Below, piece by piece: positions 37,702-38,828 of a stretch of DNA of 64,000 nucleotides. The translations under genes and the position numbers were made by a program. Below the pieces are notes generated by a model. The model was not told the DNA's origin, made no database searches, and saw only the letters and a list, made by a program, of their open reading frames with translations. The stretch's first letter is position 1; every line of letters begins with the position of its first letter. The DNA is from Ordospora colligata OC4 (lineage: Eukaryota; Microsporidia; Ordosporidae): NCBI RefSeq assembly GCF_000803265.1, contig NW_014575405.1, forward strand, positions 62,001 to 126,000, given 5' to 3'.

Positions 37702-38394
37702 CTATCTGTAGTAGTAGTGAAGGAAAGCCAAGATGAACGACATGCAAAGTAGTAGAATAAACATGAATCTGCGAAACAGCTTTCCTGACTCGCCAACTTT
37801 ATCGAGTACATTATTTCCTTTTGAAACGCAGTTACCAGCCCTTGATGCAATGTCCACAATACCATCTATTCTTTCATCCTGTAGAGTTAGATGCTCAAAT
37901 ATTGTGTCTTGCAGGGCTTCAACCTCGAGAAGCCTTTGCCTTGTGAGCCTGTATCCCTCGACATTATACTTTTCAACCAATCTTTTGTTTTCTTCTTCCA
38001 TTATCTGCACCTGGTCGATTTTTTTGAATGTCTGTGGTCTTTCTGGATTAAGATCCACAGGGACACTCATCTTTTTGTCCTTGAGCTTTGATATCCTGCT
38101 TTCAAGTGTTTTCAACTTCATGCGGATGATCTTCTTTATGCCTTCAAAGTGAAGGATAAGGTCATCTGAGCCCTGTAGAGAGATTGAATCGATTGTGTGT
38201 TGTGATTCAGATGACAGTGACGAAAATTGTTCTTCCACTGCAAGCAGCTCTTTGTATGATAGGGACTTTGTAAGTCTTTTGTTGATAAGTTCTATTTTTG
38301 TGATGATTGCATCGTAGAATGTTTTTTCTGACGATTGAAGAGGAACCTGAGCGCCTGTGTCTATGTGTTTTATATATTCATCTGTCCTATCCAT
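37702..38394 (-). CDS. UFE1: Qa-SNARE, syntaxin 18/Ufe1-like
   Basis: ER syntaxin for retrograde Golgi-ER fusion, 230 residues. The SNARE motif is near 145-205: RLLEVEALQDTIFEHLTLQD, then ERIDGIVDIASRAGNCV with GN..L.K after it, typical of Ufe1/syntaxin 18. A C-terminal anchor FMFILLLCMSFILAFLHYYY follows. The N-terminal helical domain is shorter than in yeast (346 residues). CCCC sits directly before the ATG (AATCCCCATG). It shares a 40-bp divergent region with the TIM22-like gene. SLY1 is at 33432. Confidence 0.85.
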   Translation of the reverse strand: MDRTDEYIKHIDTGAQVPLQSSEKTFYDAIITKIELINKRLTKSLSYKELLAVEEQFSSLSSESQHTIDSISLQGSDDLILHFEGIKKIIRMKLKTLESRISKLKDKKMSVPVDLNPERPQTFKKIDQVQIMEEENKRLVEKYNVEGYRLTRQRLLEVEALQDTIFEHLTLQDERIDGIVDIASRAGNCVSKGNNVLDKVGESGKLFRRFMFILLLCMSFILAFLHYYYR

Positions 38395-38434
38395 GGGGAT
38401 TCTGATTCATGCGAATAAAAGTAACTATGAGCCC
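38395..38434. promoter_or_regulatory. 40-bp divergent start-site region
   Basis: Between the UFE1 start (38394, minus) and the TIM22 start (38435, plus). CCCC for UFE1 is GGGG at 38395-38398 on +; CCC for TIM22 is 38432-38434, touching its ATG. The two genes must share regulatory DNA or place promoters inside each other's coding sequence. Confidence 0.55.
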
Positions 38435-38828
38435 ATGCGAATGAGCAGATGTGATGTAGCTTTGAGGATCTTTGAAGCGACTGGGAATTCATTTGTTGTT
38501 GGAAGTATAAGTGTGCTTTTAAGCAACGCTCTAAGAAGAGAAGGATGTAAGTGAGAAGTAGTTAATTTGAGCAAACCGAAGATTAGTGATTGAGCAACCA
38601 GTCAGGAATGGAGGAGAGATGGCAAAGCAGTCGATGGTGTATTCGCTGATTGGTTGTGGATTGAATATGTTGGGTATTTCAGGATATGCTAAGCAGTTAT
38701 TTGCACCTTTTGCTTCATCTTTTGTGTGTGGACTGAGGAATGGGAGAAGGTTTGGAGTAAAGAATGCAATGAGCGGACTGTTAGGTTCATTTGGATATGA
38801 AATGATTAATAAAGCAAGAGGGTATTAA
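38435..38828 (+). CDS. TIM22: TIM22/TIM17-family protein, two exons
   Basis: Spliced gene, exons 38435-38546 and 38572-38828, 122 residues. Unspliced, the first frame stops after REGCK; removing 25 nt from GTAAGT joins it in frame to the second ORF. The joined protein has the pattern of Tim17/22 translocases: RCDVALRIFEATGNSFVVGS as helix 1, then VYSLIGCGLNMLGISGYAKQ, then SSFVCGLRNGRRFGVKNAMS and GLLGSFGYEM as later helices. It would import or insert carriers in mitosome membranes. The start at 38435 touches CCC; 38393 is an alternative. Splice and family support one another. Confidence 0.65.
38547..38571 (+). other. 25-nt spliceosomal intron
   Basis: The inferred intron begins GTAAGTGAG and ends with a TTAAT branch-like element fused to the 3' end (TTAATTTGAG). 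It interrupts a codon after its first base. Length and architecture fit the 23-52 nt introns described in Encephalitozoon. Confidence 0.6.

What the first reader, a model, noticed from the sequence alone, without database searches (positions are those of the whole stretch)
38435..38828. TIM22-like gene interrupted by a 25-nt intron
Two short plus-strand frames, each without a recognisable complete domain, become one Tim17/22-like protein if GTAAGT...TTAATTTGAG (38547-38571) is removed. The intron has a consensus 5' site and a branch element fused to the 3' AG, as in reduced microsporidian introns. SmD3, U1A/U2B''-like and CBP20 genes in this window show that splicing persists. If right, a key mitosome import protein depends on splicing.
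Basis: partly seen in the sequence, partly recalled or inferred. Interest (0 to 1): 0.75.

Follow-up and report, generated by a model that had tools for sequence, protein, structure and literature searches.

The report
Intron-split Tim17-like gene in Ordospora
A small membrane-protein gene of a microsporidian parasite of water fleas appears to be interrupted by a tiny intron, and its protein may be a distant relative of the channel proteins that import proteins into mitochondria, although it is not the organism's main one.

Summary
The split gene is real. The window encodes, letter for letter, NCBI's Ordospora colligata protein CWI42_031180. Both exons match one 118-aa protein of four Encephalitozoon species, and removing 38547-38571 joins them in frame. 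The intron has the donor, branch element and branch-to-AG spacing of ten other introns found in this genome. The deposited model already has an intron here, 40 nt long (38547-38586). The 25-nt end fits the spacing and the relatives better; its GAG acceptor is unlike the other ten. No RNA evidence was available.

The name TIM22 is not supported. The only match over Pfam's Tim17 cut-off lies elsewhere and needs no splicing. The joined protein matches no Pfam family (E up to 10). Three of eight family proteins scanned match Tim17 below cut-off (E 0.02-0.04). A profile comparison gives 60% and exceeds all 400 shuffles, but depends on this genome's own Tim22. Hydropathy shows four segments spaced nearly as in that Tim22.

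Best reading: a splicing-dependent, divergent Tim17-family paralogue (0.5-0.6 for the family, 0.9 for the intron). If right, these microsporidia have two Tim17-family proteins, where two papers I read passages of describe one.

The parts
38441..38546 (+). exon 1 (start at 38441 favoured over 38435): N-terminal stretch and first hydrophobic segment
   Evidence: aligned start of Encephalitozoon orthologues; exon 1 alone 27.9 bits to their profile
38547..38571 (+). 25-nt intron: donor GTAAGT, branch element TTAATTT, acceptor GAG
   Evidence: spacing of ten other introns in the genome
38547..38586 (+). rival 40-nt intron used in the deposited model P0001 (acceptor TAG, 21 nt from the branch A)
   Evidence: translation identical to P0001
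38572..38828 (+). exon 2: second to fourth hydrophobic segments, motif CGxRNGRxF, stop
38552..38554 (+). in-frame TGA that ends translation after 37 residues if the intron is retained

Best explanation
A protein-coding gene in two exons, 38441-38546 and 38572-38828, separated by a 25-nt spliceosomal intron. Spliced mRNA gives a 120-aa protein with four hydrophobic segments. The family has been found so far in Ordospora, Encephalitozoon and unnamed sources. It is most likely a divergent Tim17/22/23-family paralogue that sits in a membrane, by inference the mitosome inner membrane, and may act beside, not instead of, the ordinary Tim22-type protein. Retention of the intron gives 37 residues, so full-length protein needs splicing. 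Shown here: the joined frame, the orthologues, the motif and spacing, four hydrophobic segments. Inferred: that splicing happens, that the 25-nt end is the one used, Tim17 kinship, location and role. The confidence given is for a spliced gene with Tim17 kinship, whichever acceptor is used.
For: Intron: both exons match one 118-aa protein in four Encephalitozoon species. Other relatives' open frames break at the same place: P0004 ends RREGCK as the unspliced window frame does, its partner P0003 holds exon 2, and P0002 and P0006 hold exon 2 only (their DNA was not seen). Eleven of 14 genome matches to GTAAG..YTAAYTT..AG behave as introns, this one included; of the other ten, seven are in Pfam-recognised genes. 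Branch-to-acceptor distance is 5-7 nt in those ten and 6 here. Family: PF02466 is the only Pfam hit of P0002 (E 0.042, listed to E 1), P0005 (0.022) and P0009 (0.025, both listed to E 10), in matching register. hhalign of eight family proteins (P0001 of this gene included) against six Tim17-family sequences gives probability 60%, P 8.4e-5, over both exons, beyond all of 400 shuffles. Among 156 window ORFs and six Tim sequences, the family profile ranks this genome's Tim22 next after its own two exon frames. Spacing of hydrophobic segments is close to that Tim22.
Against: No RNA data. GAG acceptor: 0 of 10 other introns have it. The joined protein and P0001, P0003, P0006, P0007, P0008 have no Pfam match. 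Sub-cut-off hits of this size also occur by chance: an unrelated small protein (L005) hit a virus family at E 0.032 and the downstream neighbour another at 0.08. The hhalign result falls to 0.5-0.7% without this genome's Tim22, to 3-12% without yeast Tim17 and, after realignment, to 1.6% without yeast Tim22; other drop-outs gave 21-74%. AlphaFold models are poor (P0001 alone pLDDT 43; eight-sequence alignment 50.7), and Foldseek with the second found one match, E 9.7, unrelated. Genome searches with the joined protein, P0005 and P0009 do not reach the Tim22 gene, nor Tim22 this gene.
Confidence: 0.55

Rival explanations
1. The gene and intron are real, but the 3' end is at 38586 (40-nt intron), as in the deposited O. 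colligata protein; the product lacks five residues.
For: P0001 equals this model; the acceptor is TAG, as in 8 of 10 other introns.
Against: The branch A would lie 21 nt from the acceptor, against 5-7 in ten others, though the pattern that found those limited the spacing. A wide-spacing TAG pattern finds only this site and one in the PTH2 gene, which has a nearer TAAT. The Encephalitozoon profile scores it 4.1 bits lower than the 25-nt model. The loop is 3 residues shorter than in those relatives, against 2 longer for 25 nt.
Confidence: 0.25
2. The family is a lineage-specific small four-segment membrane protein unrelated to Tim17; the weak resemblance comes from glycine- and alanine-rich helices.
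For: No Pfam match for the joined protein; profile signal depends on one Tim22 sequence; unrelated small proteins give equally weak Pfam hits; no structural match.
Against: Three of eight family proteins pick Tim17 alone out of 24736 models, in register; none of 400 shuffles and not the reversed profile reach the score; nearly the same spacing of hydrophobic segments as Tim22.
Confidence: 0.4
3. No intron: a frameshifted or decayed gene, or two separate short genes.
For: The frame is indeed broken in the DNA.
Against: The break carries a full intron motif expected 0.02 times per window; the P0003/P0004 pair (92-96% identical) shows the same break with both halves open, and P0002 (86%) holds exon 2 alone; the frame on both sides is conserved in species only 39-46% identical.
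Confidence: 0.05

Closest known systems
Hypothetical proteins KMI_07g11870 (E. hellem), EROM_030740 (E. romaleae), Eint_030750 (E. intestinalis), E. cuniculi GB-M1 118-aa protein; CWI42_031180 (O. colligata)
   Same: Same family, 39-46% identity over both exons for the Encephalitozoon proteins; CWI42_031180 is this gene in a 40-nt intron model
   Different: Deposited as hypothetical or uncharacterised; whether the Encephalitozoon genes have the intron could not be seen (no DNA)
Tim22-type protein of the same genome (G000:C8:23774-24151, PF02466)
   Same: Similar size (126 aa), four hydrophobic segments at similar spacing, weak profile similarity
   Different: Over the Pfam cut-off, no intron, no pairwise match to this protein in genome searches
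Spliceosomal introns of Encephalitozoon cuniculi (22-76 nt, strict donor and branch motifs; PMC3629993, parts 1-3 of 5 read)
   Same: Length, GT-AG borders, strict motifs
   Different: GAG acceptor, not seen in the ten other introns found here; acceptors of E. cuniculi introns not seen
Yeast Tim17 and Tim22 (PDB 8e1m_A, 6lo8_A)
   Same: Small membrane proteins (recalled: four segments); weak collinear profile match in the mixed alignment
   Different: No match as single sequences

Membership tests
Tim17/Tim22/Tim23 family (PF02466) | Profile match over the curated cut-off (32.7 bits) | tested here: not met
   Joined protein none at E up to 10; best family protein 15.5 bits
Tim17/Tim22/Tim23 family (PF02466) | Remote profile similarity, collinear over both halves | tested here: inconclusive
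   3 of 8 family proteins scanned E 0.02-0.04; hhalign 60%, lost without the genome's own Tim22
Tim17/Tim22/Tim23 family (PF02466) | Four transmembrane segments | tested here: met
   Four hydropathy peaks at nearly Tim22-like spacing in the joined protein and in 4 of 4 Encephalitozoon relatives, two of which show a fifth N-terminal peak
Tim17/Tim22/Tim23 family (PF02466) | Tim17 fold | tested here: inconclusive
   AlphaFold pLDDT 43 and 50.7; Foldseek with the second model one match, E 9.7, unrelated
Tim17/Tim22/Tim23 family (PF02466) | Mitosome inner-membrane location and import role | not testable with these tools
   needs cells
Tim22 orthologue | Is the genome's Tim22 | tested here: not met
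   The only match of PF02466 in the genome is at C8:23915-24097
Spliceosomal (U2-type) intron | GT-AG borders and donor GTAAGT | tested here: met
   same donor in 10 of 10 other introns, which were found with a GTAAGN pattern
Spliceosomal (U2-type) intron | Branch element near the acceptor | tested here: met
   TTAATTT, 6 nt; others 5-7 nt, though the pattern limited spacing
Spliceosomal (U2-type) intron | YAG or AAG acceptor as in the other introns | tested here: not met
   GAG; others TAG 8, AAG 2 of 10
Spliceosomal (U2-type) intron | Removed from RNA | not testable with these tools
   no RNA reads held

The most novel reading that the evidence does not exclude
Encephalitozoon and Ordospora keep two Tim17-family proteins, a Tim22-type one and this divergent paralogue, contrary to the single-Tim description of microsporidian mitosomes; in Ordospora the second can be made only from spliced mRNA, so inefficient splicing sets its amount.
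Probability: 0.35. Interest if true: 0.65.

Novelty: new member of a known kind. Interest (0 to 1): 0.4.

Why it matters
Microsporidian mitosomes have been described as working with a single Tim17-family protein (PMC6200312 and PMC3486916, passages read). A second member would change the model of how some of the smallest mitochondrial remnants import proteins. The case also shows a deposited intron boundary that is probably 15 nt off, and a short membrane protein whose possible kinship most single-sequence profile scans miss.

Tried and rejected
Label TIM22 rejected: the genome's Tim22 is on another contig. Chance motif in the window rejected. But genome counts of the motif are not clearly above the tool's own control (the pattern read backwards): 3 against 2, 6 against 5, 14 against 36, 2 against 19. 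Support for the introns comes from reading frames and genes, not from counts. Three of the 14 matches (L006, L011, L017) lie inside long frames and are not counted as introns. A third splice choice, GTGAGA 38551 to GAAG 38581 (31 nt), scores highest against the relatives (109.0 bits, no gap) but has a donor unlike the ten others and a branch 16 nt from the acceptor; not excluded. A PDB search with the joined protein gave two chance matches (E 0.34 and 0.46); with profile A3 none up to E 10. The guess that this is E. cuniculi ECU03_0715 (116 aa, PMC3629993) was dropped: gene numbering in PMC4589312 (passages) pairs ECU03_0255 with Eint_030145, which does not fit Eint_030750 well; not tested further. 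A search for five locus tags of or near this family plus ECU03_0715 found only that one mention. Papers seen only in passages: PMC9997559, PMC10815200, PMC10158259; none named this gene in what I saw. PMC5072337 (evolution of the Tim17 family) does not contain microsporid, Encephalitozoon or Nosema in its main text. The O. colligata genome paper (10.1128/mBio.02400-14) and a microsporidian intron paper (PMC6349667) were not held, so I cannot say what they report.

Full report
What the window is. The window is bases 62001-126000 of contig C3 (184,214 bases) of a 2.28-Mb, 13-contig genome. The best protein match to the joined gene is NCBI's 'hypothetical protein CWI42_031180 [Ordospora colligata]', P0001, whose longest contig is also 184,214 bases and whose letters the window gives exactly with a 40-nt intron. 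Ordospora is a genus of Microsporidia; that O. colligata infects water fleas is recalled.

The observation. Removing 38547-38571 joins the two frames into 122 codons ending at 38828; without removal translation stops at TGA 38552-38554. The pattern GTAAGT-N2..30-YTAAYTTNAG occurs once in 64 kb against a mean of 0.02 in shuffles. The main evidence is comparative. Three database searches in a chain returned nine proteins: P0001 and eight others, P0002-P0009. Four of these are complete 118-aa proteins of Encephalitozoon hellem, romaleae, cuniculi and intestinalis, 39-46% identical to this gene's protein over both exons. Against a profile of those four alone, exon 1 scores 27.9 bits, exon 2 75.4 and the joined protein 106.3. 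Of the 35 residues from MSRC to RREG in exon 1, 21 equal those of E. romaleae. These relatives start at the column of ATG 38441, so 38441 is the likelier start.

Where relatives break. P0004 and P0003 (one ORF each from 720-base contigs, 92 and 96% identical) break as here: P0004 ends ...RREGCK like the unspliced window frame. P0002 (86% identical) and P0006 (45%) begin only about the junction; the choice of a gene caller could also explain that. I could not see the DNA of any of these, so whether Encephalitozoon has the intron is open.

The 3' end. An intron here was already annotated, as 40 nt. Of 14 genome matches to GTAAGNN{3,33}YTAAYTTN{0,4}AG, 11 restore a broken frame when removed, this one included; three lie in long frames and do not. 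The tool's control, the pattern read backwards, gives 36 matches, so the count alone proves nothing. Seven of the other ten are in Pfam-recognised genes: eS1, Sec61, eS30, eL19, eL43, eL37 and PTH2 (ribosomal names by recalled nomenclature); three are in genes with no Pfam family over its cut-off. The PTH2 intron is 35 nt, ten longer than the pattern match. In these ten the branch A lies 5-7 nt from the last G of the intron. In this gene the distance is 6 for the 25-nt end, 21 for the 40-nt end and 16 for a third choice, 38551-38581. The pattern limited the spacing, but a wide-spacing TAG pattern added only this gene's 40-nt form and the PTH2 intron, which has a nearer TAAT. The Encephalitozoon profile prefers 25 nt to 40 nt by 4.1 bits and the third choice to 25 nt by 2.7 bits. 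Against the 25-nt end, its acceptor is GAG, while the ten others have TAG (8) or AAG (2). I put 25 nt at about 0.65, 40 nt at about 0.25. In E. cuniculi, three genes use alternative downstream acceptors in under 5% of reads (PMC3629993, parts 1-3 of 5 read), so both could occur.

Is it Tim17/22-like? The genome has one match to Pfam's Tim17 model, an uninterrupted 126-aa gene on contig C8, over the cut-off. That search does not find the finding's gene even at E up to 10, and the joined protein has no Pfam match at E up to 10. Eight family proteins were scanned, P0001 included, P0004 not. Three (P0002, P0005, P0009) have Tim17 as their only listed match at E 0.02-0.04, in matching register; five (P0001, P0003, P0006, P0007, P0008) have none. 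Hits of that size also arise by chance: the unrelated L005 protein hit a virus family at E 0.032 and the downstream neighbour another at 0.08. A profile of the eight against six Tim17-family sequences gives hhalign probability 60%, P 8.4e-5, over 88 columns spanning both exons. In 400 column or block shuffles the best score was 25.5 against 31.5, and the reversed profile gave 16.8. But leaving out this genome's own Tim22 drops it to 0.5-0.7%, leaving out yeast Tim17 to 3-12%, and leaving out yeast Tim22 to 1.6% after realignment (73% without); the other three drop-outs give 21-74%. In a ranking of 156 window ORFs and the six Tim sequences, the family profile places this genome's Tim22 third (14.1 bits), after the gene's own two exon frames, with the next ORF at 6.9. 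Hydropathy shows four segments at nearly the spacing of that Tim22. Structure prediction was uninformative. Kinship, probably closest to the microsporidian Tim22, is therefore likely but unproven.

How it works. Spliced mRNA would give a 120-aa four-segment membrane protein; unspliced mRNA gives 37 residues. In E. cuniculi, 30 of 37 introns are removed from under half of the transcripts (PMC3629993, part 3), so the amount of this protein may depend on splicing. A role in the mitosome inner membrane is inferred from the family alone.

Against the literature. PMC6200312 (passages) counts microsporidia among 'single Tim' eukaryotes with a probably Tim22-derived protein; PMC3486916 (passages) reports a single divergent Tim17/22/23 homologue in Trachipleistophora hominis. 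A second member in Encephalitozoon and Ordospora would extend this picture. I found no paper naming this gene (locus-tag search; listings of topic searches), but the library lacks key papers.

Noticed in passing
G000:C8:23774-24151 (L001:1360-1740): The genome's uninterrupted Tim22-type gene, PF02466 E 2.5e-8.
   Followed up: yes
L012:1501-1535 (G000:C4:114343-114377): 35-nt intron inside a PTH2 peptidyl-tRNA hydrolase gene; splicing at an earlier CAG ten bases upstream would give an early stop.
   Followed up: partly
L005, L008, L016 (around position 1501): Three further likely short introns in small genes without a Pfam family over its cut-off, two of them membrane proteins by eye.
   Followed up: partly
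   Followed up: partly
window 38394-38441: The gene and its minus-strand neighbour (37702-38394) start 46 bases apart, back to back.
   Followed up: no
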